The translations under genes and the position numbers were made by a program. Under the pieces are notes generated by a model. The model saw only the letters and a program-made list of their open reading frames with translations, made no database searches and had not been told where the DNA came from. Source: Paractinoplanes abujensis (lineage in GTDB: Bacteria > Actinomycetota > Actinomycetes > Mycobacteriales > Micromonosporaceae). Taken from it: 64,000 nt of DNA. Of the stretch, positions 7,066 through 51,064 are shown piece by piece; position 1 is the stretch's first letter; each line of letters starts with the position of its first letter. The stretch is from the NCBI RefSeq assembly GCF_014204895.1, contig NZ_JACHMF010000001.1:2170001-2234000 (forward strand). Reading direction: 5' to 3'.

Positions 7066-7993
7066 CACCGTTGCCATCAACCTACGCCCGGCGGCCCGTG
7101 CGCGACGCGGCGAACCAGCTCCCGCGCCTACATCACCCCGACGACCCGCCCGTACTGCGGCACATGCGAATTCGACTGCCACACCCCGCGGCTACGGCGG
7201 TCAGACAGGCGCCGCTACACCCCGCCTTTATGACACAGAATCCCGTGCCACCCTGGCATCTACGTCCGGCTCGGCGAGGAGACCTCCGCCCGCATCACCG
7301 CCGAGAACGACGAGCACCACCGGCGGCACCGACGCTGACCACGCGGCCCACGTACCGGGATCGGGGAAAACGGCGATCGGCCTACGGCAAACCGCCCGCT
7401 TCGAGGAAGTCGCCCCAGGTGACGCCCTAGATCAACTACTTACCGTTGTTTCTGGTCTGAAAGCTACGGGCGGCCCCTGATGGTGTCGCTGCTGCCCATG
7501 GTGACCGGCTCATGCTGGCCCAGTGGCCGTCCCTGGCCGAGGTGGCCCTGGTCGTGGCGGGCATCGCCGTCGCCGTCGCCGATGGCGATCGGTTCGGCCG
7601 AACCGGGCAGCCACGCCCGCGCGCCCAGCTGCTCGACCGCTACACGAACGTGCTCGGCGCCGATCGAACAGACGCCGAGTCGGCCGCGGCCTCCGGGGTC
7701 TGTCGAGCCGGCCCACGAAGCGAACAAGCTAGCATCCTAGGATGCTCTAGACGCAACTACCAGAGTCACAGCGGAGGACCGACCCTTCGGGCCGCTCCCG
7801 TTCTCCGCCGAGAGAACACCCCTGACGTCTGCACCGCTTCAGGCCGGCAAGGTGCGCGGACCGAGGCCGTTGCCGGTCGGCCGGGCGGGATGCGGGCGAG
7901 TCCGTGGCGGCGGGCCCGGTCCCGGATCGTCGCGCGGCGAAAATGTGCCCGGCCCCTCAAGGCGACTGCTTCGCGATGGTGACGCCTCTCGCT
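7066..7993. other. Gene-poor decayed stretch
   Basis: No convincing gene was found here. Open frames are short, change frame often and match nothing I recognise. A stretch at 7259-7339 could be the end of a lost gene: it reads IYVRLGEETSARITAENDEH in one frame before a stop and resembles a ribbon-helix-helix or antitoxin tail only vaguely. The only sharp signal is a palindrome at 7731-7746. Confidence 0.5.
7731..7746. promoter_or_regulatory. 16-bp perfect palindrome AGCATCCTAGGATGCT
   Basis: This is a perfect 16-bp inverted repeat in otherwise non-coding DNA. Its core CATCCTAGGATGC recurs at 16943-16955 just upstream of the NIS operon, which suggests a shared DNA-binding regulator. Which gene this copy would control is unclear; the nearest downstream gene is the TetR regulator at 8049. 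Confidence 0.5.
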
Positions 7994-8048: not shown

Positions 8049-8684
8049 ATGCGGCGAGAACAGGGTTTGCGGGACCGCAAGAAGGCGCAGACACGGGAGC
8101 GGATCGCTGACGTGGCTGCCGGCCTGTTTGCCGAGCGTGACTACGACGCGGTGTCCGTCATGGATGTGGCGCGCGCGGCGAACGTGTCGGATCAGACCGT
8201 GTACAACTATTTCCCCGCCAAGCAGGACCTCGTGCTCGACCGGGTCGATGAGTTCCTCGAGCTGTATCGGCACGCCGTGCTCGAACGGGCCGAAGGGGTG
8301 AGTCCCGCAGCTGCCCTGCGCCCGCTCGTCGAGGCTGACATCGACCGCTACCGTCACGCCGACCCGCGGCTGGCGCGCGGCGAGTTCCCAGCACAATGCG
8401 TCGAGAGCCCTGTATTGCGGCGTTTCGCCCTGGAATTTCGGGAGCGGCAGGTCGACACGGTGGCGGCATCGATCCTCAGTACCTGCCCAGCCCTGGAACC
8501 TATAGTCGCCCGGGCCCACGCGGCCGCACTCATCAGTGTCGTCCAGACAATCACCGACCAGATCGGCGCCAGCCTTCTGAACTCAGGTCCCACGGACGCC
8601 CTGGCAGCCGACATGACACAGGCCGCGGCTACGGCGTTCGATGATCTCGACCGGACCTTCCGCACCATGACGAACGGCTCCTGA
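8049..8684 (+). CDS. TetR-family transcriptional regulator
   Basis: This 211-residue protein has an N-terminal TetR HTH at about residues 18-60 (RERIADVAAGLFAERDYDAV, then SVMDVARAANVSDQTVYNYF) and a divergent helical ligand domain. I chose the ATG at 8049 (MRREQGLRDRKKAQTRERI), which begins at the usual distance from the HTH. It is in the same orientation as the FAD monooxygenase 165 bases downstream and probably controls it. An inverted repeat just upstream suggests self-repression. The ligand is unknown, but a TetR paired with a flavin hydroxylase usually senses an aromatic or antibiotic compound. Confidence 0.9.
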   Translation: MRREQGLRDRKKAQTRERIADVAAGLFAERDYDAVSVMDVARAANVSDQTVYNYFPAKQDLVLDRVDEFLELYRHAVLERAEGVSPAAALRPLVEADIDRYRHADPRLARGEFPAQCVESPVLRRFALEFRERQVDTVAASILSTCPALEPIVARAHAAALISVVQTITDQIGASLLNSGPTDALAADMTQAAATAFDDLDRTFRTMTNGS

Positions 8685-10452: not shown

Positions 10453-11095
10453 ATGGACGATCTCATCGCCGTGCCGCGCAGTTTTCTGGACATGCCGCGA
10501 TGGTGGGGCGGCGGGTCGGAGTGGCTGGCGGGGCTGCCCCGGCTTGTTCAGCACTACGGCCGGCGGTGGGGCCTGGCCGTGGACGGTGCCGTGATGCACG
10601 GCTCCAACGCCCTGGTCGTGCCGGTCGTGCGGGCCGGGGAGCCGTTCGTGCTGCGGTTGACGCCGCCGGGGGCGGATGTGGGGGAGCAGGTGGCGGCGTT
10701 GCGGTTCTGGGACGGGCGGGGCACGGTGCGGCTGGTCGGCGCGAGCCGGGGGCCGGCTGGCGCGGGCCGAGCCGGGGCTGGCGGTCGACGCGGACCTGCA
10801 TTCGGGTCAGGTGCTGCGGGGTGGGCGGGAGCCGTGGCTGGCCGTCGACCCGGTGCTGATGCGCGGTGACCCGGCGTACGACCTGGCCCGGGTTTTGTGG
10901 ACGCGGGTCGACGAGATGGGCGACGACGACATCCTGCGGCATTTCGGGGCGGTGGTGCAGGCGGCCGGCGTCGGGCGTGACCACGGCCGGGACTGGGTGG
11001 TGTACCGCACGGTCGACTACTGGTTGTGGGGGCTGTCGGCCGGGTTGACGGAGGATCCCGTGCGGTGCGGGCGGCTGCTCGCGCCGTTCCTGTAG
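10453..11095 (+). pseudogene. Aminoglycoside-phosphotransferase-fold kinase, internally deleted and frameshifted
   Basis: The first frame (10453 to about 10750) reads MDDLIAVPRSFLDMPRWWGG with FVLRLTPPGADVGEQVAALR and WDGRGTVRLVGA, the N-lobe of an APH/streptomycin 6-kinase-like protein. The second frame continues with ADLHSGQVLRGGREPWLAVD and DPAYDLARVLW, equivalent to the catalytic HGDLH and D-P-D region. About 100 residues between the two parts are missing and the frame changes, so the gene is dead. Its 3' end overlaps the convergent uridine-kinase-like gene by 79 bases. Confidence 0.75.
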
Positions 11096-11661
11096 GTCCA
11101 GGCCGGGTGCCGGGGGTCGTCGTTGTGCACGACGATGTGGGCGCGCTCGGTGGGGGCGTCGCGGGTGAAGTACAGCCGTTGGGCCGGGAGGTAGCGTTCG
11201 CGCCAGCGCCGTTCGACGTCGGCCCGGGTGGAGGTGGGGCTCTCCCGTACGACGGCCCGTTCCACAGTCCGGTCGAGGCCGACCGATACGAAGATGCTCA
11301 GGTCCCACCGGTCGACCAGTTCGGGGCGCAGGAGGAAGACCCCGTCGACGATGAGGACGCCGTCGCCCGGCCGCAGCGGGTCGAGCACCTCCCGGGACAG
11401 CCGGCGGTGGTCGTGGGTGTCGAAGTAGCAGCTCTCCGCGGTGAACTCACCGCGCGCGTAGCGCCGGGCCGGCGGGTGCAGGTAGTCGTCGATCGTCGCG
11501 CGGACGACGGGGTGGCCCCGGCCGCGCAGCAGGGCGGCCAGTTCGTCGGCGAGGGTGGTCTTCCCCGCGGCCGGGGGCCCGTCGACGGCGACGCGGGCCG
11601 GGTGGGTGAGGGATTGCACGGCGTGGACGAGGTGGGTGAGCAGCGCGTCGCGGGTGGTCAT
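11017..11661 (-). CDS. Uridine-kinase-like P-loop phosphotransferase
   Basis: This 214-residue protein has a Walker A motif GPPAAGKTT at residues 28-36, IDDYLHP, the conserved YFDTHDHRRL block and IVDGVFLLRPEL, all features of the uridine kinase/phosphoribulokinase-like family. It should phosphorylate a nucleoside or another small alcohol with ATP. It is the last gene of the six-gene NIS operon, and its ATG overlaps the Nudix stop (ATGA). The final 25 residues are Ser/Pro/His-rich and overlap an antisense pseudogene, so the C-terminus may be extended relative to relatives. Its place in this operon suggests that it activates a pathway intermediate. Confidence 0.8.
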   Translation of the reverse strand: MTTRDALLTHLVHAVQSLTHPARVAVDGPPAAGKTTLADELAALLRGRGHPVVRATIDDYLHPPARRYARGEFTAESCYFDTHDHRRLSREVLDPLRPGDGVLIVDGVFLLRPELVDRWDLSIFVSVGLDRTVERAVVRESPTSTRADVERRWRERYLPAQRLYFTRDAPTERAHIVVHNDDPRHPAWTYRNGASSRPHRTGSSVNPADSPHNQ

Positions 11662-12134
11662 CGGTGCAGTCCGATCGGTTCGGGGGGCGGGCCGTCGGTG
11701 CGCAGGGCGGCCGTTCGGCTGGGCAGGTCGTGGGGGCCGAAGAGGTCGGGTCCGGCGTACGTGCGGAGGTCGTCCGGGGGCCACCAGCGGGCGCCGTACG
11801 TGTTCTCGGCGGCCAGTTGCTCGTCGGTGAGGCTGCCGCGGGGGTCGAAGGCGGGGGTGCGTACGAGGTAGTAGTCGTTGACGGCCACGTCGTAGCCGGG
11901 CAGGTAGGGCGGGGCGGGCACTTCGCGGTGCCAGACGTGCGGCGGGGTGCCGTGCAGGGTGAGGCCGACTTCCTCGGCGAGTTCGCGGCGCAGGGCCGCC
12001 AGTGGGGTCTCGCCGGGTTCGATCCGGCCGCCGGGTGGGGCCCAGACGGTGGTGTCGTGCAGCCGGTGGCGTACGAGAAGGAGGCGGTCGGTCTCGTCGA
12101 GGATGAGCGCGCGGACGGCGTGGCGGACGTTCAC
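11658..12134 (-). CDS. Nudix hydrolase
   Basis: This 158-residue protein has a perfect Nudix box GX5EX7REUXEEXGU (GRIEPGETPLAALRRELAEE followed by VGL, about residues 35-57). Such enzymes hydrolyse nucleoside diphosphates linked to another moiety. The GTG start at 12134 overlaps the stop of the deaminase gene (GTGA) and the stop overlaps the kinase start, so it is embedded in the operon. The Trp/Pro-rich C-terminal part (ARWWPPDDLRTY) is typical of Nudix proteins acting on nucleotide-like substrates. Confidence 0.85.
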   Translation of the reverse strand: MNVRHAVRALILDETDRLLLVRHRLHDTTVWAPPGGRIEPGETPLAALRRELAEEVGLTLHGTPPHVWHREVPAPPYLPGYDVAVNDYYLVRTPAFDPRGSLTDEQLAAENTYGARWWPPDDLRTYAGPDLFGPHDLPSRTAALRTDGPPPEPIGLHR

Positions 12135-12628
12135 GCGGCCGCCATGGTGCGGGCCCAGCGGCGGAAGCTGTTGTCGGGGCCGGCGTCGGCGTAGCGGCGG
12201 AACTGGTCGCGGGTTTCGTCGCGGCGCAGGCCGCCGGTGATGGCGGGTGGGCGGTACCAGGGCAGGGCGGGGTCGACGGGCCGGCCGGTGACCGCGGCGG
12301 TGCCGCCGTCGGCGGGGCTTTCCAGGCCGTAGTAGACGTCGGCGACGACCAGGGCCATGGCGGCGCCCATGCACATCAGGCACGGTTCGAGGTTGACGGC
12401 CAGACGCAGCGGGCCGGGGCGTTTCCGCCAGCCCAGCGCCTCGTCGGCGGCGGTCATGGCCAGCAGGTCGGCGTGCACGAGGCGGCGGCCCAGGCCGGTG
12501 TCGCGGGTGTGGGCCCGGGCGATGATCTCGCCGTTCAGTTCGACCACGGCGCCGATCGGCATCTCGCCGTGGGCCAGGCCGTCCTCGGCCACGTCGAGCG
12601 CGGCCCGGATCAATTCGTCGGGGGTCAT
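12131..12628 (-). CDS. Cytidine/adenosine-deaminase-fold protein with H-A-D in place of H-A-E
   Basis: This 165-residue protein has the zinc deaminase fold of the TadA/guanine deaminase group. PCLMC (C83 and C86) gives two zinc ligands and H52 the third. The catalytic glutamate expected in HAE is aspartate here (VHADLLAM, D54), a rare change that may alter or abolish proton shuttling. GEMPIGAVVELNGEIIA is the typical N-terminal block. It starts five bases after the decarboxylase stop. The C-terminal extension of about 60 residues is longer than in TadA. The family deaminates nucleobases or nucleosides; the substrate here is unknown. Confidence 0.85.
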   Translation of the reverse strand: MTPDELIRAALDVAEDGLAHGEMPIGAVVELNGEIIARAHTRDTGLGRRLVHADLLAMTAADEALGWRKRPGPLRLAVNLEPCLMCMGAAMALVVADVYYGLESPADGGTAAVTGRPVDPALPWYRPPAITGGLRRDETRDQFRRYADAGPDNSFRRWARTMAAA

Positions 12629-12633
12629 GCCGC

Positions 12634-13749
12634 TCAGAGAATCACGAATTCCGGTGGCGGGTGGCGCAGGAAGTCGTGGTGGGAGATGTCCCAGCCGTAG
12701 GCGCCCGTACGCCCGAAGACGAGCAGGTCGCCGGCGCGCACGCGGGTGACGTGCCGGCCGCGGCTGAGGACGTCGCGCGGGGTGCACAGTTCCCCGACGG
12801 CGTCGATCTCGCCGTCGGTGTGGACCGGCCGGGCGTACGGGTGGGGCCAGTCGTCGACGTCGATGACGGTGAACGGGTGGGAGTAGCCCCAGGCGGCGGG
12901 CAGGCGGAAGTGGTGGGTGCCGCCGCGCAGGACGGCGAAGGTGCGGCCGTGGGTGGTTTTCACGTCGATCACTTCGGTGGCGTACCAGCCGGCGTCGGCG
13001 GCCAGCAGCCGTCCGGGCTCGAAGACCAGGTCGACACCGGGCGGCACGTCGATGCCGCGCAGCGGGGTCAGGTCGATGTGGGTGTCGCTGAGGTAGTCGA
13101 CGCCGAAGCCGCCGCCCACGTTGACCACGCGTGGGTGGATGCCGGTGGCCAGGGCCCAGTCGAGCGCGGACCGGACGAACGCGGCGTGGGCGTGGCCGTC
13201 GAGGTTGTTCGACACGGCGTGCAGGTGGAACCCGATGATCTGGACGCCGGGGACCGCGAGGGCTTGACCCAGCTGCGTTTCGTCGACGCCGAACGGGGTG
13301 GGGGTGCCGGTCATGGTGTGGCTGCCGGTCAGTGCGGGGCCGGCCCGGTTGACGCGCAGCACGACTTCGGCGCCGGGGCGCAGGGCGGCGATGCGGTGCA
13401 GTTCGTGGATGCTTTCCGCGTTGATCTGGGCGCCCGCGTCGAGGGCGGCCGTGAGCTCGGCGTCGGTCTTGGCCGGGCCGCCGAACACGATGCGCCGGGC
13501 GCCGGCCTGGCGGGCCCGGTCGAGTTCGCCGCCGGAGGCGACTTCGAGGCCGTCGCACTCGGCGGCCAGGGTGGTGAGCACCGACGGGTGACCGTTGGCT
13601 TTCACCGCGTACAGCAGGGAAGCCTTGGCCGGCAGGTGCCGGCGGACCGTCGTGGCCCGGCTGCGCAGCGCGGCGGTGTCGTAGACGTAGGCGCAGACCG
13701 GGCGCTCGAGCGTGCGCAGGGCCTGGACGACGTGGTCAGGCGGGTGCAT
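12634..13749 (-). CDS. PLP-dependent decarboxylase, alanine-racemase fold (PvsE/SbnH-like)
   Basis: This 371-residue type III PLP enzyme belongs to the ornithine/DAP/arginine decarboxylase group. The PLP lysine is K50 in LLYAVKANGH, the phosphate-binding loop is VNVGGGFGVDY (G212-G214), EPGR lies at 244-247 and the substrate-side cysteine is C322 in GELCTPRDV. Members next to NIS synthetases (PvsE in vibrioferrin, AcsE in achromobactin, SbnH in staphyloferrin B) decarboxylate a citryl-amino acid intermediate. The same role is inferred here. Its start overlaps the upstream NIS gene by 14 bases. Confidence 0.88.
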   Translation of the reverse strand: MHPPDHVVQALRTLERPVCAYVYDTAALRSRATTVRRHLPAKASLLYAVKANGHPSVLTTLAAECDGLEVASGGELDRARQAGARRIVFGGPAKTDAELTAALDAGAQINAESIHELHRIAALRPGAEVVLRVNRAGPALTGSHTMTGTPTPFGVDETQLGQALAVPGVQIIGFHLHAVSNNLDGHAHAAFVRSALDWALATGIHPRVVNVGGGFGVDYLSDTHIDLTPLRGIDVPPGVDLVFEPGRLLAADAGWYATEVIDVKTTHGRTFAVLRGGTHHFRLPAAWGYSHPFTVIDVDDWPHPYARPVHTDGEIDAVGELCTPRDVLSRGRHVTRVRAGDLLVFGRTGAYGWDISHHDFLRHPPPEFVIL

Positions 13750-15217
13750 GCAGCGGATTGTGCACGGGCACGTAGAGGTCGCCGTGGCCGGCCAGCCGCA
13801 TCCGGACGAGGGCTTTGTGCGGCACCTGAGGGGCGGTGAAGGCGGCGTGGTCCTCGCCGGTGACGTGCTCGTCGACGATGCGGCGGATGATGCGCCACGC
13901 GTCGGCCTCGTCCATGGGCAGGCGCAGCACGAGTTCGCCCAGGTGGGCCTGGAACAACGTGTATCCGATCTTGGCGCGGAACACGTCGAGGTCGTCGGTG
14001 CCGACCACCGAGCCCGGCCACAGGTCGACGGTGTGCCCGGCCGCGGCCAGGCGGGGCCGGTGCAGGCGTAGCCCGGCGAAGTCGCGCAGGGCCAGCCGGT
14101 GGGGGCGGCCGCCGACGAAGGTGGGCAGGCAGTTCTGCAGGTGGGCCTCGAGCGCGACGCCCTGGGCGGTGAGCCTCATCAGTGGGGGGACGACCAGTTC
14201 CCCGTACGCCCGGAGCCAGTCGGCGGGATCCCCGGTGACCAGTTCGCCGAGCAGCAGGGGCAGCGCGCCGCCGGGGATCGCGCGTTCGCCGGGCTGCAGG
14301 CGGGGGCCGAGCCCGTCGCGGCGGATGGCCGACAGGTCACGGCCGGAACCGGCGGGGACGGCGGCGCCCGCGGTCTCGGCCATGAGCAGCAGCCGGTCGT
14401 CGTCGACGAGGTCGTGCAGCAGTTTCGACACGGCGGGCCCGTTGCGGGTGCTGGCGACGCTGATGCTGCGCCGGGTCGAGGTGACCTGGATGTCCAGTGA
14501 CACCTTCAGGTAGTCTCCGGTGCCGGGCAGCAGCAGGGTGCGCAGCGCCGCGGTGGGCACGGCCTCCCGTTCGTCGTCCAGGACGACCAGGGCTTTCGTG
14601 CGCAGCAGGTCGGCGTAGCGGACGGGCAGGACGTTGTCGCGTTGCCACGCGTGCACGGGCTGCACCGCGTACCCGGACGGTTTGCCGATCTCGGGGTAGA
14701 CGTCGTCGCCGATGTGCAGGTCGGCCCGCACGGCCACGAAACCGATCCGGGTGCGGCCGGCTTCCAGGTCGTGGGCCAGCACGTCACCGGTGTCCCAGCC
14801 CAGCCGGGTGCGGCCGCACGGGTGCAGGTTGTGCCCGGCCACGGCCAGGCGTTCCAGCGCGATGATCTGCTCGTCGGGGTGGTCGCCGGGCACGGGGTGG
14901 GGGCGGGCCAGGGCGATCGCGAGGTTCATGACGGCGTTGCGGATCTCGGCGGCGAAGCCGGGGGCGTCCAGGCCGTCGAGCATGTCGAGGGGGTCGTCGA
15001 CACCGGCGGTGGCGTATTCGACGCGCCCGAAGCCGTGCCGGGTCCCGGGCCCCATGTCTTTGAGGCCTTCCCGTACGAGGGCGCCGCGCAGCCGCCGCCC
15101 CACCGTGTCGGCCGCCTCGGGCAGCGCGGCCAGGAAACCGGGGACCAGGTCGGGGGCGTGCACGGCCAGGGCGGCCTCGGTGTGCGCGATCCGTTCCGGG
15201 CGCAAGGTCTTGTTCAT
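13736..15217 (-). CDS. IucA/IucC-family NIS synthetase, second copy
   Basis: This 493-residue protein joins a carboxylic acid such as citrate to an amine or alcohol through an acyl-adenylate. It shows the family motifs: GHNLHPCGRTRLGW in the N-terminal half, KVSLDIQVTSTRRSI, and ALEAHLQNCLP followed by LRDFAGLR in the C-terminal half. The ATG at 15217 overlaps the stop of the first synthetase gene (ATGA). At about 490 residues it is shorter than typical IucA/IucC proteins (about 580-600), missing part of the N-terminal region. It probably acts in sequence with the first copy. Confidence 0.92.
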   Translation of the reverse strand: MNKTLRPERIAHTEAALAVHAPDLVPGFLAALPEAADTVGRRLRGALVREGLKDMGPGTRHGFGRVEYATAGVDDPLDMLDGLDAPGFAAEIRNAVMNLAIALARPHPVPGDHPDEQIIALERLAVAGHNLHPCGRTRLGWDTGDVLAHDLEAGRTRIGFVAVRADLHIGDDVYPEIGKPSGYAVQPVHAWQRDNVLPVRYADLLRTKALVVLDDEREAVPTAALRTLLLPGTGDYLKVSLDIQVTSTRRSISVASTRNGPAVSKLLHDLVDDDRLLLMAETAGAAVPAGSGRDLSAIRRDGLGPRLQPGERAIPGGALPLLLGELVTGDPADWLRAYGELVVPPLMRLTAQGVALEAHLQNCLPTFVGGRPHRLALRDFAGLRLHRPRLAAAGHTVDLWPGSVVGTDDLDVFRAKIGYTLFQAHLGELVLRLPMDEADAWRIIRRIVDEHVTGEDHAAFTAPQVPHKALVRMRLAGHGDLYVPVHNPLHAPA

Positions 15218-16899
15218 GCGTGTCCCGTCATCGGGTTGTCGATCAGGGCCCACTGGTCGTGGAGCGGGTCGGTGGCGAGCCGCATCGCGGTGGTGGCCTT
15301 GACGGGCAGGGGTTCCTTGAGCAGGGAGGGGACGTCCTCGGTGCCGGTGGCGCGCACGGCGCGGGCCACGATCGCCCACAGCCGGTCGGGGTCGGCGCCG
15401 CGGGTGCGGGTGAGCGTGGCGACCACTTCGGCGGCGACGGTGCCGAACGCGGCGGCGGCCAGTTTGGTGCGCAGCTCGCCCGGGTCGTCGCTGGTCAGGT
15501 CACCGCGCAGGGGCGGGGGTTCGACGCAGGCGTTGCGCAGCCGGCGGGGGCTGACCCGCACACCGCCGAGGTCGCGGTAGAGGATGCGGCGGGGGCGGCC
15601 GTCGCGCAGCACGACCAGGGTGTTCTGGCCGTGTGCCTCCAGGGCCACGCCGCGGGCCAGCACGCAGGTGACGGGGGCGAAGAACACGTCGGCGAGGGCG
15701 GTCATCCACTCGTACGGGTCGTCGACGTCGACGGTGCCGATGGCGGCGAGGGGTACGGCGAGCTCACCCGGGTGCAGCTGGGGGGCTTCGCGGATGACGT
15801 GGGCCAGGTGACGCTGGGGGTGCCCGTCGACGATGACGGCGCCCGCGGCGATCTCGGCCAGGATGTCGATGGGCTGATCGGCGACGAGGCGGCGCAGCAG
15901 CGCGGACAGGACCGGGCCGTTGTGGACGGCGGCCGGGGAGACGGTGCGTACGGCGCTGGTCATCTGCACGTCGACGGCGGTTTTGATGTGCGGGCCGCCG
16001 TTGACGGGCGCGACGGTGCGCAGCGACATCAGGGGACGTACGGGTTCGGTCTGCCCGTCGGGCCGCAGCCACGGATGCCGGTCGAGCAGGCGGCGGGCCT
16101 GCCACGGGTGGGCGTAGAGGATCGGGGCGGCGGAGCCGTACCAGCGGCCGTCGGGCACGCGGAGCCGTTGGAGGCGGATGACGGGGGAGTGTTCCGGCCC
16201 GTACGCGAGGACGTCGGCCACGGTCATGCCGCCGCGGGTGCGGCAGCACGGGTGCAGCGGATGGCCGTCGGTGACGAGCTGCTCGATGCGGCCCAGGGCG
16301 TCCGGGTCGCCCGGTTCGGGCCGGCCGGTGGTGGGGCGGTCGGCGCGGGCCAGGGCCAGGTTGGCGACGCTGTTGTCGATCTCGGCCGCAAGGGGGACGT
16401 CGCCCCACAGCAGGCGGACGAGCTCGGCGGGGTCGGTGATCGAGGCCGGTCCGGCGGTGACGCTCAGGCCGTCTCCGGGTCGCGCGAAGGGGAGCGCGGC
16501 GTCGGTGGGGTAACGAAGTGTCACCGGCGCGGGGTCCTGCGGCCGGCTGACGGTTTCACTCGTGACAGTGACGGCCGGTCGGCCGGTTGCCGGGTCCTCG
16601 TCGCGGTACTCCCCGGCTGGGTCCGCGTCGTCCGAGCGGGCCTGTTGCCGGCCCGCGGCGAACGTGGCCGAGCCCGGTTGCCGGGAGAGCAGCCCGGGGA
16701 GGCGTTCCCTGGCCACGGCGCCCAGCAGTCGGGACAGGACAGCGGCCCGTGCCCCGGGCAGCTCGGCGTCGAAACCCGCGACCAGATCGGGACGCAGGGA
16801 CGCCAGTTCGGCCCGCGTCCGAAGGGGACCGGCGGTGTGGGCGGTTCCGGGAGATCGCGGCACGAACCTCATTCTCCGCACAGCCCCCACAAGATCCAC
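15214..16899 (-). CDS. IucA/IucC-family NIS synthetase, first copy
   Basis: This 561-residue protein carries the NIS signatures: GHPLHPCCRTRGG at 212-224, KTAVDVQMTSAVRTV, EAHGQN at 421-426 and RDLGG at 442-446. It activates a carboxylate with ATP and condenses it with an amine or alcohol, as in siderophore assembly. The start is the GTG at 16899 or the ATG at 16872 (MRFVPRSPG). It is the promoter-proximal gene of a six-gene operon and has the palindrome CATCCTAGGATG 44 bases upstream. No siderophore transporter, receptor or exporter is in the operon. Confidence 0.92.
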   Translation of the reverse strand: MDLVGAVRRMRFVPRSPGTAHTAGPLRTRAELASLRPDLVAGFDAELPGARAAVLSRLLGAVARERLPGLLSRQPGSATFAAGRQQARSDDADPAGEYRDEDPATGRPAVTVTSETVSRPQDPAPVTLRYPTDAALPFARPGDGLSVTAGPASITDPAELVRLLWGDVPLAAEIDNSVANLALARADRPTTGRPEPGDPDALGRIEQLVTDGHPLHPCCRTRGGMTVADVLAYGPEHSPVIRLQRLRVPDGRWYGSAAPILYAHPWQARRLLDRHPWLRPDGQTEPVRPLMSLRTVAPVNGGPHIKTAVDVQMTSAVRTVSPAAVHNGPVLSALLRRLVADQPIDILAEIAAGAVIVDGHPQRHLAHVIREAPQLHPGELAVPLAAIGTVDVDDPYEWMTALADVFFAPVTCVLARGVALEAHGQNTLVVLRDGRPRRILYRDLGGVRVSPRRLRNACVEPPPLRGDLTSDDPGELRTKLAAAAFGTVAAEVVATLTRTRGADPDRLWAIVARAVRATGTEDVPSLLKEPLPVKATTAMRLATDPLHDQWALIDNPMTGHA

Positions 16900-16942
16900 G
16901 CGGGGCGGTCCAGGGTGAGCGAGAACGCAGTAACCAAACCAC

Positions 16943-16954
16943 CATCCTAGGATG
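16943..16954. promoter_or_regulatory. Palindrome CATCCTAGGATG in the NIS operon promoter
   Basis: This perfect 12-bp palindrome lies 44 bases before the first NIS gene, reading toward the minus strand. Just upstream on that strand is TATTCT, a plausible -10 box, so the palindrome would overlap the transcription start, a repressor position. It is not an IdeR/DmdR iron box, and I see none in this promoter. The same core occurs at 7733-7745. Confidence 0.6.
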
Positions 16955-17257
16955 CATTACAGAATATGCGCCCAGGAACAGGCGCACCGAACCCCAAACC
17001 AAAAGGAATCAACGGCATCCCCGAAAAAACTTGGCCGGCCCAGGCGCCGGGAGGGTCCTGCCTGCGGGCCGATGGGCGCGCGAGGGTCTGCGCGGGGCGG
17101 TCGACCGGTCGAGCCGACGAACTCGGCGGGATCGGCGGGATCGCACGCATCAGCCTCAGCTTGCCGATAGCGGGCGGCCCCAGCTGTGGCCCTTCGAGGC
17201 GACTGTGGCCAGCCCGCGCCTGCTGCGCCCCGCGTCGGCGCAGCACACAGGGTCGGT

Positions 17258-30163: not shown

Positions 30164-30305
30164 CCCCCGACCGTATGCGGTGCCGGCCCGGTACGCCGTC
30201 GTCCGGTCGCAGTAGTGCCCGCGGGTCAGAAGTACCGCGGACGCAGTAGCCGCCGACCGCGGCTGGACGACGCCCCGGACGATCATCGCCGCGACCGTGG
30301 TGGGC

Positions 30306-32414
30306 ATGGCTACGTTCCTCTACCGGCTGGGCCGGTTCTCGTTCCGCCGCCGCTGGACGGTGGCGCTCGCGTGGGTGGCGGTGCTGATCGCCGCGGTGGC
30401 CGGGATGGCGCTGCTGCAGAAACCGACGACGGCGGCGTTCAGCATCCCCGGCACCCCCGCGCAGCAGACGATCGACCTGCTCTCGGAACGCTTCCCCCAG
30501 GCCGCCGGCACCACCGCGTCGGCCCGCGTCGTGTTCGCCGGCGACACTCAGCTCGACCGGGCCGCCGTGGACCGCACCCTGGCCGCGCTGCGCGGCGCCC
30601 CGCAGGTCGCCGCGGTCGGTGAGCTCACCTCCAACGCCGGCGGCACCATCGCCTACACCCAGGTCACCTACCGGGTGCCGGCCACCGACCTGAGCCCGGC
30701 CGACCAGGACGCCCTGGTCGCCGCGGCCCAGGTGGGCCGCGACGCCGGGCTGACCGTGGAGATCGGCGGGGACGCGCTGACCCCCGGCGGGCACACCCCG
30801 ATCGCCGAGGTGATCGGCATCGTCGTGGCCGCCGTGGTCCTGCTGATCACGTTCGGGTCGCTGGTGGCGGCCGGGCTGCCGCTGCTGACCGCGCTGATCG
30901 GAGTGGGTATCGGGGCCGCGGGGATCGGCATCGCCACCCGCTTCACCGACCTGTCCGCGTCCACGTCGACCCTGGCCATGATGCTGGGGCTGGCCGTGGC
31001 CATCGACTACGCGCTGTTCATCGTGTCGCGCTACCGGCACGAACTGGGCGCCGGGCACCCCCGCGCCGAGGCGGCCGGGCGGGCGGCGGGCACGGCCGGG
31101 TCCGCCGTGGTGTTCGCCGGCCTCACCGTGATCATCGCGCTGGCCGGGCTGGCCGTGGCCGGCATCCCGTTCCTCACGCAGATGGGGGTGGCCGCCGCGG
31201 GCACCGTGGCCGTGTCCGTGCTGATCGCGCTCACCCTGCTGCCGGCCCTGCTGGCGATCTCCGGCGGCCGGATCAAACCTTCCCCCGTACGGGATCAAGC
31301 CGCCCGGCCCGCGCTCGGGATCCGCTGGGCCCGCACCGTCGCCCGCCGCCCCGTGGTGTTCCTGCTGGCCGCCGTGGTCGGGTTGGGCGTGGTCGCGCTG
31401 CCCGCCGCGTCGCTGCGGCTGGGCCTGCCCACCGAGGGCAGCTCCGCCCCCGACACCACCCAGCGCAAGGCCTACGACCTGCTGGCCGCCGGCTTCGGGC
31501 CCGGCTTCAACGGCCCCCTCACGGTGGTGACCGACGCCCCGGACGCGACCCGGGTGTCGCAGCAGATCACCGGGCTCGGCGACGTCGCACTGGTCAGCCC
31601 GCCGGTCACCAACCAGGCCGGCGACACCGCGATCCTCAGCGTGATCCCCGCCGGTGCCCCCGACAACGCCGGCACCGAGGACCTGGTCCACGCCATCCGC
31701 GACGTCGACGGCACCCTCGGCGTCACCGGCACCACCGCCGTCAACCTCGACATCAGCGAGAAACTGTCCGACGCCCTGCTGCCGTACCTGGCGCTGGTCG
31801 TGGGGCTGGCGTTCGTGCTGCTGGCCCTGGTGTTCCGGTCGGTGCTCGTGCCGTTGAAGGCGACCCTGGGGTTCCTGCTGTCGGTGACGGCCACGTTCGG
31901 GGCGCTGGTCGCGGTGTTCCAGTGGGGCTGGCTGGCCGACATGTTCGGGGTCTCGCAGACCGGCCCGATCATCAGTTTCCTGCCGATCCTGCTCATCGGC
32001 ATCGTCTTCGGCCTGGCCATGGACTACCAGGTGTTCCTGGTGACCCGGATGCGTGAGGACTACGTGCACGGCGCGGACGCCCGCGCGGCCGTGGTCAGCG
32101 GGTTCGGGCACGGCGCCCGGGTGGTCACCGCGGCCGCGCTGATCATGATGAGTGTGTTCTTCGGGTTCATGCTCGGCCCCGAAGCCATCATCAAGTCCGT
32201 CGGGTTCGGGCTGGGCGTGGCCATCCTGTTCGACGCCGTCGTGGTCCGGATGATCCTGGTGCCCGCGGTGATGACCCTGCTCGGCCGCTCCGCCTGGTGG
32301 CTGCCCCGCTGGCTCGACCGGATCCTGCCCGACGTCGACGTGGAAGGCGAGAAACTGACTCGCCACCTGGCCGCCGCCGGAACCGGCGAACCCAAGGAAC
32401 TGGCCCTGCGCTAA
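30306..32414 (+). CDS. MMPL/RND-family transporter, copy 1
   Basis: This 702-residue membrane protein has the duplicated RND layout: helix 1, an extracytoplasmic domain, helices 2-6 (GLAVAIDYALFIVSRYR), then a second half (IVFGLAMDYQVFLVTRMRED). Both halves carry the conserved D-Y pair used for proton coupling. MmpL proteins export lipids or small molecules. The ATG at 30306 matches the start of the second copy at 38891. It is divergent from the two-component pair. Long stretches are identical at DNA level with copy 2. Confidence 0.93.
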   Translation: MATFLYRLGRFSFRRRWTVALAWVAVLIAAVAGMALLQKPTTAAFSIPGTPAQQTIDLLSERFPQAAGTTASARVVFAGDTQLDRAAVDRTLAALRGAPQVAAVGELTSNAGGTIAYTQVTYRVPATDLSPADQDALVAAAQVGRDAGLTVEIGGDALTPGGHTPIAEVIGIVVAAVVLLITFGSLVAAGLPLLTALIGVGIGAAGIGIATRFTDLSASTSTLAMMLGLAVAIDYALFIVSRYRHELGAGHPRAEAAGRAAGTAGSAVVFAGLTVIIALAGLAVAGIPFLTQMGVAAAGTVAVSVLIALTLLPALLAISGGRIKPSPVRDQAARPALGIRWARTVARRPVVFLLAAVVGLGVVALPAASLRLGLPTEGSSAPDTTQRKAYDLLAAGFGPGFNGPLTVVTDAPDATRVSQQITGLGDVALVSPPVTNQAGDTAILSVIPAGAPDNAGTEDLVHAIRDVDGTLGVTGTTAVNLDISEKLSDALLPYLALVVGLAFVLLALVFRSVLVPLKATLGFLLSVTATFGALVAVFQWGWLADMFGVSQTGPIISFLPILLIGIVFGLAMDYQVFLVTRMREDYVHGADARAAVVSGFGHGARVVTAAALIMMSVFFGFMLGPEAIIKSVGFGLGVAILFDAVVVRMILVPAVMTLLGRSAWWLPRWLDRILPDVDVEGEKLTRHLAAAGTGEPKELALR

Positions 32415-38720: not shown

Positions 38721-38890
38721 CGGCTCCGAAGACGCGGGGCACGGCGGCGCGAAGCACCACCACCGGCTGGGTGCAGCGGAACTGCTGTTCGCCCGCATGA
38801 CCGGCGCCGGCACCACACCGTCCGGCCGCGGGCGGCACCGAAACCGGCGAAAACGACGTGAGCGGCGGCAAACCCGAGGAACGTGAGGGC

Positions 38891-41053
38891 ATGGCTACGT
38901 TCCTCTACCGGGTGGGCCGGTTCTGTTTTCGTCGCCGCTGGGCGGTGCTGCTGGCCTGGGCCGGGGTGCTGGTGGCCGCCATGACCTCGATGGTGCTGCT
39001 GCAGAAGCCGACCACCGCCTCGTTCAGCATCCCGGGCACCCCCGCGCAGCAGACGATCGACCTGCTGCGCGAGCGGTTCCCGCAGATGGGCGGTCCGGGC
39101 GGGGCGTCCGCGCGGGTCGTGTTCTCCCAGCCCGGCAACAACAAGCTGAACCAGGACGCCGTGCAGCGGGCGGTCAACGCGCTCAAGGCCGTCCCGCTGG
39201 TGGCCGCGGTCAGCGACCTGGCCCCCAACGCCGACGGCACGGTCGCCTACGTGCAGGTCACCTACAGCGTGCCCGCGGGTGACCTGACCGGCGCGGCCCG
39301 CCAGGGCATGGACGACGTGATCATGTTCGCCCGCGCGGACGGGCTGATCGCCGAGGTGGGCGGGGACGCGGTGCAGGCCTCCGGGCACGCCCCGGTCGGT
39401 GAGGTCGTCGGCCTGATCGTGGCCGCCCTGGTCCTGATCGTCACGTTCCGTTCCCCCGCCGCGGCCGGGCTGCCGCTGCTGACCGCGATCGCCGGGGTGG
39501 CGCTGGGCTACGCCGGGATCGGCATCGCCACCCACTTCACCGAGCTGTCCGGCACCACGAGCTCGCTGGCGATGATGCTGGGCCTGGCCGTGGCCATCGA
39601 CTACGCCCTGTTCATCGTGTCGCGCTACCGCATCGAGCTGGCGCTGGGCCGCGACCGGCTGGACGCGGCCGGGCGGGCGGCCGGCACCGCGGGCAACGCC
39701 GTGGTGTTCGCCGGCCTCACCGTGATCATCGCGCTGGCCGGGCTGGCCGTGGCCGGGATCCCGTTCCTGACCCAGATGGGGGTGGCCGCCGCGGGAACCG
39801 TGGCCGTGGCCGTGCTGATCGCGCTGACTCTGCTGCCGGCGCTGCTCGCCGTGGCCGGCACGAGGATCAACCCGGCGCCCGTACGGGATCGGTTCGGCAA
39901 GCCGGCGTTCGGGGTGTGGTGGGTGCGGCTGATCGCCCGCCGCCCCGTCGTGGCCCTGCTGGCCGTGGTGATCGGTCTCGGCGTGGTCGCCATCCCCGCG
40001 TACGACCTGCGCCTGGGCCTGCCCACCGACGGCAGCGCGGCCGCCGACACCAGCCCCCGCCGCGCGTACGACCTGCTCTCCGACGGTTTCGGGCCGGGTT
40101 TCAACGGGCCCCTGACCGTCGTGGCCACCCCCGGCACCTCCGTCGAAGGCCAGGCCGGGGTGGCCATGGTGATCCCGTCGGCCACCAACGAGGCCGGCGA
40201 CACCACGATCCTGACCGTCATCCCCACCACCGGGCCCGAGGACCGCGCCACCGAGGACCTCGTGCACCGGCTGCGCCAGGCGTACGGGGTCCTCGGGGTG
40301 ACCGGCGCAACCGCGATCAACGTCGACGTGAGCGAGAAACTGTCCGACGCCCTGCTGCCGTATCTGGCGCTGGTCGTGGGGCTGGCGTTCGTGCTGCTGG
40401 CCCTGGTGTTCCGATCGGTGCTCGTGCCGCTCAAGGCCACCCTCGGGTTCCTGCTGTCGGTCGCGGCCACCTTCGGCGCGCTGGTCGCGGTGTTCCAGTG
40501 GGGGTGGCAGGCGTTCCTGCTCGGCATCACCCAGACCGGCCCGATCATCAGTTTCCTGCCGATCCTGCTCATCGGCATCGTCTTCGGCCTCGCCATGGAC
40601 TACCAGGTGTTCCTGGTGACCCGCATGCGTGAGGACTACGTGCACGGCGCCCCGGCCCGCCAGGCGGTCGTCTCCGGCTTCGGTCACGGCGCCCGCGTCG
40701 TCACCGCCGCCGCGCTGATCATGATGAGTGTGTTCTTCGGGTTCATGCTCGGCCCCGAAGCCATCATCAAGTCCGTCGGGTTCGGGCTGGGCGTGGCCAT
40801 CCTGTTCGACGCCGTCGTGGTCCGCATGATCGGTGTCCCGGCGGTGATGCTGCTGATCGGGCGGGCCGCGTGGTGGCTGCCCCGCTGGCTCGACCGGATC
40901 CTGCCCGACGTCGACGTGGAAGGCGAGAAACTGGCCCGCCACCTCGACGAGCATCCGCCGCCGGTGCCGCACGACCACGCCGAGCCCGTCGACACCACCC
41001 AGACCGGTGAGGCTCCGGAAACCATCGAGTCGGCCGGCAGCCGCCCCACCTGA
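38891..41053 (+). CDS. MMPL/RND-family transporter, copy 2
   Basis: This 720-residue protein has the same RND architecture as the gene at 30306 and begins with the same MATFLYR sequence. A 116-base segment (40709-40824) is identical to 32133-32248. The C-terminus has an extra acidic/His tail (HPPPVPHDHAEPV). No two-component pair accompanies this copy; a small membrane protein follows. The high similarity points to duplication with later gene conversion. Confidence 0.93.
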   Translation: MATFLYRVGRFCFRRRWAVLLAWAGVLVAAMTSMVLLQKPTTASFSIPGTPAQQTIDLLRERFPQMGGPGGASARVVFSQPGNNKLNQDAVQRAVNALKAVPLVAAVSDLAPNADGTVAYVQVTYSVPAGDLTGAARQGMDDVIMFARADGLIAEVGGDAVQASGHAPVGEVVGLIVAALVLIVTFRSPAAAGLPLLTAIAGVALGYAGIGIATHFTELSGTTSSLAMMLGLAVAIDYALFIVSRYRIELALGRDRLDAAGRAAGTAGNAVVFAGLTVIIALAGLAVAGIPFLTQMGVAAAGTVAVAVLIALTLLPALLAVAGTRINPAPVRDRFGKPAFGVWWVRLIARRPVVALLAVVIGLGVVAIPAYDLRLGLPTDGSAAADTSPRRAYDLLSDGFGPGFNGPLTVVATPGTSVEGQAGVAMVIPSATNEAGDTTILTVIPTTGPEDRATEDLVHRLRQAYGVLGVTGATAINVDVSEKLSDALLPYLALVVGLAFVLLALVFRSVLVPLKATLGFLLSVAATFGALVAVFQWGWQAFLLGITQTGPIISFLPILLIGIVFGLAMDYQVFLVTRMREDYVHGAPARQAVVSGFGHGARVVTAAALIMMSVFFGFMLGPEAIIKSVGFGLGVAILFDAVVVRMIGVPAVMLLIGRAAWWLPRWLDRILPDVDVEGEKLARHLDEHPPPVPHDHAEPVDTTQTGEAPETIESAGSRPT

Positions 41054-50657: not shown

Positions 50658-50687
50658 GGTCGGTGGTGGCGCCGCAGCCGCGGTTGT

Positions 50688-50731
50688 CCCGGACGAGGAC
50701 GTGTCGTACCCGGCAGGCAAAGACGACCGCG
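50688..50731 (+). promoter_or_regulatory. Guanidine-III (ykkC-III) riboswitch
   Basis: The leader of the gdx gene contains CCGGACGAGG, then a short variable loop, TACCCGG and CAGG-CAAAGACGAC, matching the order of conserved blocks in the guanidine-III class. Helix P1 is CCGG (50689-50692) with CCGG (50710-50713). A pseudoknot can form between GTCGT (50703-50707) and ACGAC (50723-50727). The Shine-Dalgarno GAAGGTGG follows directly at 50733, so ligand binding probably controls translation. Confidence 0.85.
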
Positions 50732-50749
50732 TGAAGGTGGTGCGTCGCC

Positions 50750-51064
50750 GTGGCCTGGGTTGTTCTTGTCGTTTCCGGTGTGCTGGAGTCCGTGTGGGCG
50801 ATCGCTTTGGGGCGTTCGCAGGGTTTCACTCGTCTGATCCCGAGTGTGGTTTTCGGGGTGGCGCTGGTGCTCAGCATGGTCGGGTTGGCTTACAGCTTGA
50901 AGAGCATTCCCGTCGGTACGGGTTACGCCGTGTGGGTGGGTATCGGCGCGGTCGGCACGGCCGTGGCCGGGATGGTGTTTCTCGGCGAGTCCGCCAGTGT
51001 GCTGCGGATCGTGTCGTTGCTGCTGGTGGTGGCCGGGGTGATCGGGCTCAAGGTGTTCCACTGA
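50750..51064 (+). CDS. gdx: Guanidinium exporter Gdx (SugE-type SMR)
   Basis: This 104-residue four-helix SMR protein is of the Gdx/SugE branch rather than the drug-efflux branch: VSGVLESVWAIALGRSQGFT with the key glutamate E13, then SLKSIPVGTGYAVWVGIGAV and AGMVFLGESASVLRI. These are the conserved blocks of guanidinium/proton antiporters. The GTG at 50750 follows a guanidine-III riboswitch, which strongly supports the assignment. Confidence 0.93.
   Translation: MAWVVLVVSGVLESVWAIALGRSQGFTRLIPSVVFGVALVLSMVGLAYSLKSIPVGTGYAVWVGIGAVGTAVAGMVFLGESASVLRIVSLLLVVAGVIGLKVFH

What the first reader, a model, noticed from the sequence alone, without database searches (positions are those of the whole stretch)
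11017..16954. Six-gene NIS synthetase operon with deaminase, Nudix and kinase partners but no transporter
Two IucA/IucC synthetases and a PvsE/SbnH-like decarboxylase are the core of citryl-amine siderophore pathways such as vibrioferrin or staphyloferrin B. Here they are coupled by overlapping starts and stops to a deaminase-fold protein, a Nudix hydrolase and a uridine-kinase-like protein. No exporter, uptake system or iron box is seen. The set suggests a carboxylate conjugate joined to, or activated through, a nucleoside-like unit. The family assignments are seen in the sequence; the product is inference.
Basis: partly seen in the sequence, partly recalled or inferred. Interest (0 to 1): 0.8.

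Follow-up and report, generated by a model that had tools for sequence, protein, structure and literature searches.

The report
Three-gene citrate siderophore operon plus hitchhikers
A soil actinobacterium carries a conserved three-gene set that probably joins citrate to a small diamine to make an iron-binding molecule, while the deaminase, Nudix and kinase genes next to it look like chance neighbours rather than part of the pathway.

Summary
All six ORFs exist as described, but comparison splits them. The first three (two IucA/IucC synthetases A and B, and an SbnH-like decarboxylase C) are a conserved operon: B is found in 67 of 67 genomes of the genus and 18 of 24 genera of the family searched, and A-B-C order is kept in 63 of 69 fetched loci. 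The last three are not conserved: none of 65 fetched loci with C has a contiguous deaminase-Nudix-kinase run, and the deaminase is inverted in five. The lack of linked siderophore transporters holds across relatives. In trees A and B form a clade outside AcsD/PvsD, AcsA/PvsB and AcsC/SbnF, pairing with the N- and C-halves of a fused, CiuE-like synthetase. C keeps the SbnH-type Trp that PvsE/AcsE references replace by Gln. Best reading: a citryl-diamine (rhizoferrin-like) siderophore-type pathway in a combination I did not find described; substrates and product are unknown. No iron box here, though three homologous operons have one. Interest moderate.

The parts
15214..16872 (-). Gene A: IucA/IucC-type NIS synthetase (552 aa from ATG 16872), core of the operon
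   Evidence: clade placement; keeps 16 of the 20 columns that were at least 23/25 identical in reference NIS proteins in all 21 A sequences
13736..15217 (-). Gene B: second IucA/IucC-type NIS synthetase (493 aa), paralogue of A
   Evidence: clade placement; an otherwise invariant Ser is Ala in 19 of 21 B sequences
12634..13749 (-). Gene C: fold-III PLP decarboxylase of the SbnH/PvsE/AcsE (citryl-amino acid decarboxylase) type, 371 aa
12131..12628 (-). Gene D: TadA-like deaminase; local neighbour, not part of the conserved core
   Evidence: not conserved and inverted in 5 of 65 relatives
11658..12134 (-). Gene E: Nudix hydrolase; local neighbour, not part of the conserved core
11017..11661 (-). 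Gene F: P-loop kinase-like protein (uridine-kinase-like); local neighbour, not part of the conserved core
16943..16988 (-). Conserved promoter-region element: inverted repeat GGTGCGCC...GGGCGCA (16988-16967) and palindrome CATCCTAGGATG (16954-16943), 71 bases before the ATG of A
   Evidence: alignment of 20 close relatives; core in 36 of 63 upstream stretches

Best explanation
Genes A-B-C are a compact NIS siderophore-type (metallophore) pathway. One synthetase activates citrate with ATP and joins it to an amine of a diamino acid; the SbnH-type enzyme C then removes the alpha-carboxylate of the citryl-amino acid, giving a citryl-diamine; the other synthetase adds a second carboxylate, most simply another citrate, giving a rhizoferrin-like dicitryl-diamine. 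In logic it is the corynebactin/staphyloferrin A type of synthetase pair with a staphyloferrin B type of decarboxylase added. Export and uptake must be encoded elsewhere in the genome. D, E and F are local neighbours that happen to lie on the same strand. Shown here: gene families, conservation, placement in trees, active-site residues, absence of linked relatives of known siderophore transporters and of an iron box. Inferred: order of steps, carboxylate and amino acid, the product, and siderophore function itself.
For: B found in 67 of 67 genomes of the genus and 18 of 24 genera of the family. A-B-C in order on one strand in 63 of 69 fetched loci. A and B in one clade (99/94, 98/94) apart from the AcsD/PvsD, AcsA/PvsB and AcsC/SbnF clades, A with the N-half and B with the C-half of a fused NIS-NIS protein from L107, an architecture described for CiuE (PMC3326035 and PMC7857480, passages). 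NCBIfam's best match for both is the rhizoferrin synthetase FslA, 79 and 91 bits, far below its cut-off of 1000. JGI names 5 of the 80 listed relatives of the fused protein 'staphyloferrin A synthase'. C: best solved relatives 6knh/6knk at 285 and 283 bits (6knk is SbnH per PMC7857480), against 28.6 bits for the N-citrylornithine decarboxylase 7kh2; at the SbnH citryl contacts named in PMC7857480 the window has R282, A286, W287, R325, H357 for R304, S308, W309, K347, H379. Iron boxes upstream of 3 of 63 homologous operons (L092, L100, L101) at 4-5 mismatches, against 1 of 3780 simulated stretches.
Against: No iron box upstream of A in the window or in any same-genus stretch examined. No linked transporter. 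B has lost an invariant Ser of other NIS proteins (19 of 21), so its activity is not certain. The CiuE, SfaB, SfaD and rhizoferrin synthetase sequences themselves were not in the trees. The sister relation to AcsC/SbnF is weak (87/73, 89/69). An SbnB-type gene for Dap supply is not over the cut-off in the window genome, so the most SbnH-like substrate has no evident source. Outside the family the A-type synthetase is partnered differently.
Confidence: 0.62

Rival explanations
1. One reading: all six genes make a carboxylate conjugate joined to, or activated through, a nucleoside-like unit, with the deaminase, Nudix and kinase as tailoring enzymes.
For: Overlapping starts and stops through all six genes in the window; deaminase and Nudix follow C directly in two relatives as well (L042, L060).
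Against: No contiguous D-E-F run in any of 65 fetched loci with C; D inverted in 5 and not seen nearby in 57; F nearly absent. The core is genus-wide without them.
Confidence: 0.04
2. The core makes a citrate conjugate that stays in the cell or is released without a dedicated exporter, for a purpose other than iron scavenging (for example metal buffering or storage).
For: No relative of known siderophore transporters near the operon in 69 of 70 stretches; no iron box but a different conserved promoter element in the genus; very stable inheritance.
Against: Iron boxes in three homologous operons and before a second NIS gene in G087 (L108, 2 mismatches). An MFS gene follows NIS-NIS-decarboxylase in Streptomyces sp. 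BHT-5-2, though its second NIS is of the AcsD/PvsD type. FecCD/Peripla_BP_2 uptake genes and a siderophore-interacting protein lie near iron boxes elsewhere in the genome, so unlinked uptake is plausible.
Confidence: 0.15
3. The core makes a vibrioferrin- or staphyloferrin B-like mixed siderophore (citrate plus 2-oxoglutarate or another carboxylate) and not a dicitryl-diamine.
For: The decarboxylase type is shared with those pathways, and gene order NIS, NIS, decarboxylase resembles PvsB-PvsD-PvsE. The Ser-to-Ala change in B might go with another carboxylate (inference).
Against: Neither A nor B falls in the AcsD/PvsD or AcsA/PvsB clades. No ATP-grasp, SbnA, SbnB or citrate lyase-type gene stands beside A-B-C in the window. 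Position W309 is W, where PvsE/AcsE references have Q (3 of 3).
Confidence: 0.15

Closest known systems
Corynebactin synthetase CiuE (two fused NIS domains; two citrates on lysine) and staphyloferrin A synthetases SfaD/SfaB
   Same: Two paralogous NIS units; A and B pair with the two halves of a fused NIS-NIS protein of CiuE-like architecture.
   Different: Split genes; an SbnH-type decarboxylase is present, which those pathways lack according to PMC7857480 and PMC3326035 (passages; SfaC is a racemase); no linked transporter. CiuE, SfaB and SfaD themselves were not compared.
Staphyloferrin B pathway (SbnA-SbnI)
   Same: Decarboxylase closest to SbnH among solved structures, with the SbnH-type Trp.
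   Different: Two NIS genes instead of three, in another clade; no SbnA, SbnB, SbnG-like or MFS gene beside them.
Vibrioferrin pathway (PvsA-PvsE)
   Same: NIS, NIS, PLP decarboxylase in the same order.
   Different: Other NIS clades; no ATP-grasp or MFS gene; Trp in place of the Gln of PvsE in the decarboxylase.
Rhizoferrin by the citrylornithine route (FslA/FigA-FslC/FigC)
   Same: Synthetase plus citryl-amino acid decarboxylase logic; FslA is the best NCBIfam match of A and B.
   Different: Two synthetases instead of one; scores far below the FslA cut-off; C resembles SbnH and hardly FslC (27.9 bits).
A-type NIS of Streptomyces sp. BHT-5-2 and of other genera of the class
   Same: Nearest relatives of A outside the family in my trees.
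   Different: Partnered with an AcsD/PvsD-type NIS instead of a B-type one; decarboxylase and MFS present in BHT-5-2, no decarboxylase like C seen in the 15 loci mapped.

Membership tests
NIS siderophore biosynthesis (general) | IucA/IucC synthetases with NIS catalytic residues | tested here: met
   Pfam; conserved columns (A keeps Ser, Arg, Lys, Arg, Glu, His, Gln, Asn, Asp; B keeps all of these but the Ser)
NIS siderophore biosynthesis (general) | Iron-regulated expression | tested here: inconclusive
   No iron box in the window; box in 3 of 63 homologous operons
NIS siderophore biosynthesis (general) | Linked exporter or uptake genes | tested here: not met
   17 reference MFS, permease and binding proteins searched against 69 loci and window 1-30000: one weak hit (L086, 51 bits, 2.8 kb away); positive controls found
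Corynebactin / staphyloferrin A type | Pair of paralogous NIS units of the CiuE/Sfa kind | tested here: inconclusive
   A and B group with the halves of a fused NIS-NIS protein; genuine CiuE and Sfa sequences not in the tree
Corynebactin / staphyloferrin A type | Product: two citrates on an undecarboxylated diamino acid | not testable with these tools
   Needs chemistry; the presence of C argues against it
Staphyloferrin B | SbnC, SbnE and SbnF type synthetases plus SbnA/SbnB | tested here: not met
   A and B outside those clades; no SbnB over the cut-off in G000
Citryl-amino acid decarboxylase (SbnH/PvsE/AcsE) | Fold-III PLP decarboxylase with SbnH citryl-contact residues | tested here: met
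   R304, W309 and H379 kept, K347 as Arg, S308 as Ala; Ala is also found at S308 in 7 of 10 reference decarboxylases
Vibrioferrin | PvsA ATP-grasp plus PvsB and PvsD clades | tested here: not met

The most novel reading that the evidence does not exclude
A family-wide pathway that makes an undescribed short-bridged dicitryl-diamine siderophore (for example N,N'-dicitryl-1,2-diaminoethane) by combining a split CiuE-type synthetase pair with an SbnH-type decarboxylase, found in every genome of the genus searched, with no linked transporter and under a promoter element that is not an iron box.
Probability: 0.25. Interest if true: 0.6.

Novelty: new variant of a known kind. Interest (0 to 1): 0.42.

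Why it matters
It replaces a speculative six-gene nucleoside-conjugate pathway by a small testable one: three enzymes predicted to turn citrate and a diamino acid into a citryl-diamine, conserved through a genus known for natural products. It suggests that public names for gene C ('alanine racemase', 'diaminopimelate decarboxylase') are misleading. It also raises a question: why would a siderophore-type operon be inherited so stably with no linked transporter and no iron box, while the same genome keeps ordinary iron-box genes elsewhere?

Tried and rejected
Six-gene unit: rejected on neighbourhood comparison. Nucleoside conjugate: no support found. Anti-phage role for D-F: PADLOC gives one weak Nudix match (PDC-S07, 39.7 bits), a chance-level kinase match (14.6 bits) and none for the deaminase; not pursued. 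Membership in vibrioferrin, achromobactin or staphyloferrin B pathways: rejected on trees and missing genes. Dap as an obligate substrate: not supported (SbnB over the cut-off in 17 of 90 genomes, not in G000). A linked exporter: the nearest G000 relative of the Streptomyces BHT-5-2 MFS is unlinked at 6.42 Mb (42% identity). The palindrome as an iron operator: its 7 other exact genome sites outside this window lie near varied genes, so I treat it as a promoter or regulator element of unknown partner. A second fold-III decarboxylase beside a PALP gene at 7.007 Mb: no NIS gene near it, not taken further. Literature searches (abstracts and listings, with passages of five papers read) showed nothing that describes this three-gene operon; the Micromonospora lupini genome paper (PMC4182475, passages) lists IucA/IucC genes as aerobactin. 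SCO5799-SCO5801 of Streptomyces coelicolor was recalled as a possible counterpart; PMC6414726 and PMC3224560 (passages) call it only a siderophore set, and I did not show homology.

Weak points of my own work: genes in relatives were called with a simple codon-model script that missed genes, including inverted deaminases that tblastn found later and most genes of the lower-GC loci L106 and L107. Labels of reference rows (PvsB, AcsD, SbnH-type and so on) are mine, from gene order and annotation. In one search one control row (own_L173) turned out to be the PALP gene, so four own-genome controls count (L168, L169, L170, L172). L204 gave no A call. Long control branches make the root of the tree unsure. 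A first transporter search with BLAST's low-complexity filter gave no hit at all and had no positive control; one search repeated it without the filter and with controls. By eye one MFS-type gene lies about 3 kb upstream on the other strand in L093, another genus, and one search did not pick it up, so the search misses distant MFS proteins. I fetched 49 of the 66 other same-genus genomes' loci; 17 were not looked at for context.
Full report
What is there. The window lies in a 9.33 Mb genome whose nearest named relatives are Paractinoplanes and Actinoplanes. Six - strand ORFs run from 16872 to 11017 with short overlaps or a 5 bp gap. Family scans confirm two IucA/IucC-FhuF synthetases (A, B), a fold-III PLP decarboxylase (C), a TadA-like deaminase (D), a Nudix hydrolase (E) and a P-loop kinase-like protein (F). 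None of the six reaches a curated NCBIfam cut-off.

Which genes belong together. Protein B was searched in 150 genomes: 89 have a match at 1e-20, namely 67 of 67 of the genus (window genome included), 18 of 24 genera of the family by my count of the rows, and 5 genomes of two other families. I fetched up to 20 kb around 69 matches: 49 of the 66 other same-genus genomes, and 20 loci from other genera or families. A, B and C lie in that order on one strand in 63 of 69: 60 by a strict rule, and L056, L068 and L074, which miss only my 400-base gap limit. In L109 and L110, on short contigs, A could not be placed. L105, L106 and L107, from other families, and L108, a 5.8 kb contig with a second NIS gene of G087, lack C. 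Of the 65 loci with C, D follows on the same strand at 8-9 bp in 3 (L042, L043, L060), is inverted in 5 (L045, L046, L047, L049, L050) and is not seen downstream in 57. E is on the same strand in 4 (L042, L043, L044, L060), directly after D in 2 (L042, L060). F is downstream in 1 (L042, 1.8 kb after C) and 7 kb away on the other strand in 1 (L064). None has D-E-F contiguous. In 18 of the 19 closest loci (L042-L060) an ABC-F-like gene lies upstream, on the other strand. So D-F are local neighbours, not a conserved part of the pathway.

No linked transporter. I searched 17 transporter proteins (8 MFS, 4 permeases, 5 binding proteins) from the reference siderophore loci and from the window genome's own uptake loci against the 69 loci and window 1-30000. 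One weak hit came out (L086, MFS, 51 bits, 30% identity, 2.8 kb away), and the control loci were found. The search misses distant MFS proteins: L093 has one about 3 kb upstream on the other strand that it did not report. Seven of seven annotated reference loci do carry transporters: Pseudonocardia, Cupriavidus, Agrobacterium, Bacillus badius, Vibrio fortis, Sodalis and Methylocystis. Streptomyces sp. BHT-5-2 has NIS-NIS-decarboxylase followed by an MFS gene. In the window genome, FecCD and Peripla_BP_2 genes, a siderophore-interacting protein and a heme oxygenase lie near iron boxes elsewhere, and PF04183 occurs only at this locus.

What the synthetases are. Maximum-likelihood trees of 67 and 47 sequences place A and B in one clade (99/94 and 98/94), outside the AcsD/PvsD, AcsA/PvsB and AcsC/SbnF clades; the link to AcsC/SbnF as sister is weak (87/73, 89/69). 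Inside the clade, A groups with the N-half and B with the C-half of a fused 1070-aa NIS-NIS protein (L107), and likewise with the two synthetases of L106 and of L105. PMC3326035 (passages) describes CiuE as two homologous NIS regions needed for corynebactin, a dicitryl-lysine, and compares it with SfaD and SfaB; PMC7857480 (passages and section 11) agrees and suggests that an asymmetric backbone needs two enzymes. Genuine CiuE and Sfa sequences were not in my trees. NCBIfam's best match for A and B is FslA at 79 and 91 bits (cut-off 1000); an AcsC reference also scores 107 bits with FslA but 559 with SbnF, so the FslA score alone says little. A keeps the invariant catalytic-type columns; B has Ala for an otherwise invariant Ser in 19 of 21 sequences, L100 and L105 keeping Ser. 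I cannot explain that.

What the decarboxylase is. C's best solved relatives are 6knh/6kni and 6knk; PMC7857480 (passage) names 6knk as SbnH and gives its contacts to the citryl group as R304, S308, W309, K347 and H379. Read from the alignment, these are R282, A286, W287, R325 and H357 in C. In 66 family sequences the residues are R 66; A 65, S 1; W 65, Y 1; R 64, K 1, N 1; H 65, P 1. At W309, 4 of 4 Sbn-type references have Trp, 3 of 3 PvsE/AcsE references have Gln, and the three from Streptomyces, Nonomuraea and Embleya have Lys. At K347 all ten references have Lys, so the Arg of the family is a change. Four other decarboxylases of the window genome lack R304, W309, K347 and H379. C therefore looks like an enzyme for N-citryl rather than O-citryl substrates (inference). 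In a 30-sequence tree the family's C sequences form a group (90/82) beside the references (96/96). SbnB is over its cut-off in 17 of 90 genomes and not in the window genome, so the diamino acid is open.

Regulation. The best iron-box match upstream of A in the window has 9 mismatches of 19. Three operons of other genera have 4 or 5 (L092, L100, L101; 3 of 63 stretches), against 1 of 3780 stretches simulated from a first-order Markov model. The second NIS gene of G087 (L108) has a box with 2 mismatches. In the genus a conserved stretch with an inverted repeat and the palindrome CATCCTAGGATG lies about 70-150 bases before A; TCCTAGG or CCTAGGA occurs in 36 of 63 upstream stretches. The pattern TARNSCRTCCTAGGA has 9 exact sites in the genome (9 more with one mismatch; reversed-pattern control 3 in all), near varied genes.

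Wider spread. An alignment of A finds 24 of 394 genomes of the class, in 3 of 138 genera, window genome included. In 15 of 16 fetched loci from the two other genera the A-type synthetase stands beside a divergent AcsD/PvsD-type synthetase, and no C-like gene appears among the ten genes mapped around it (L204 gave no A call). The A-type enzyme thus occurs with different partners.

Verdict. The three-gene core is most likely a citryl-diamine siderophore-type pathway, in a combination that I did not find described in the searches. Substrates, product, activity of B and secretion are untested.

Noticed in passing
10453-11095 (+): An aminoglycoside/hydroxyurea phosphotransferase-like gene is broken: one ORF matches the first 65 positions of APH_6_hur and an overlapping ORF in another frame matches positions 164-247. 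It runs convergent with gene F and overlaps its 3' end; a related gene sits at the same place in L042. Described only.
   Followed up: partly
50666-50732 (+): Guanidine-III riboswitch match (37.5 bits, gathering 36) followed by a small SMR-type transporter ORF at 50750-51064 (label mine).
   Followed up: partly
7732-7745: The only other place in the whole genome with the exact pattern GYRTCCTAGGAYR is 9 kb from the NIS promoter, upstream of a TetR-like gene at 8049.
   Followed up: partly
30297-32414 and 38858-41053 (+): Two long, clearly similar RND/MMPL-type transporter ORFs a few kb apart (label mine).
   Followed up: no
L174:6911-9747 (genome about 7.007 Mb): A fold-III decarboxylase next to a PALP-rhodanese protein (SbnA-like by eye) and an aminotransferase-type gene: another possible small pathway.
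   Followed up: partly
13736-15217 (-), residue 224 of B: An otherwise invariant Ser of NIS synthetases (25 of 25 references, 21 of 21 A sequences) is Ala in 19 of 21 B sequences. Unexplained.
   Followed up: partly
L106:10351-12677 and L107:11929-15277: In two genomes of another family the CiuE-like NIS genes lie beside aspartate-semialdehyde dehydrogenase- and aspartokinase-like ORFs (labels mine), directly in L106 and one ORF away in L107; perhaps linked to a lysine-derived backbone, perhaps chance.
   Followed up: no
L205, L209, L215: In another genus of the class a VWA-type protein lies 3' of the A-type synthetase in 3 of the 4 loci printed; a binding protein-VWA fusion (family f37) follows C in several other genera of the window's family.
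   Followed up: no
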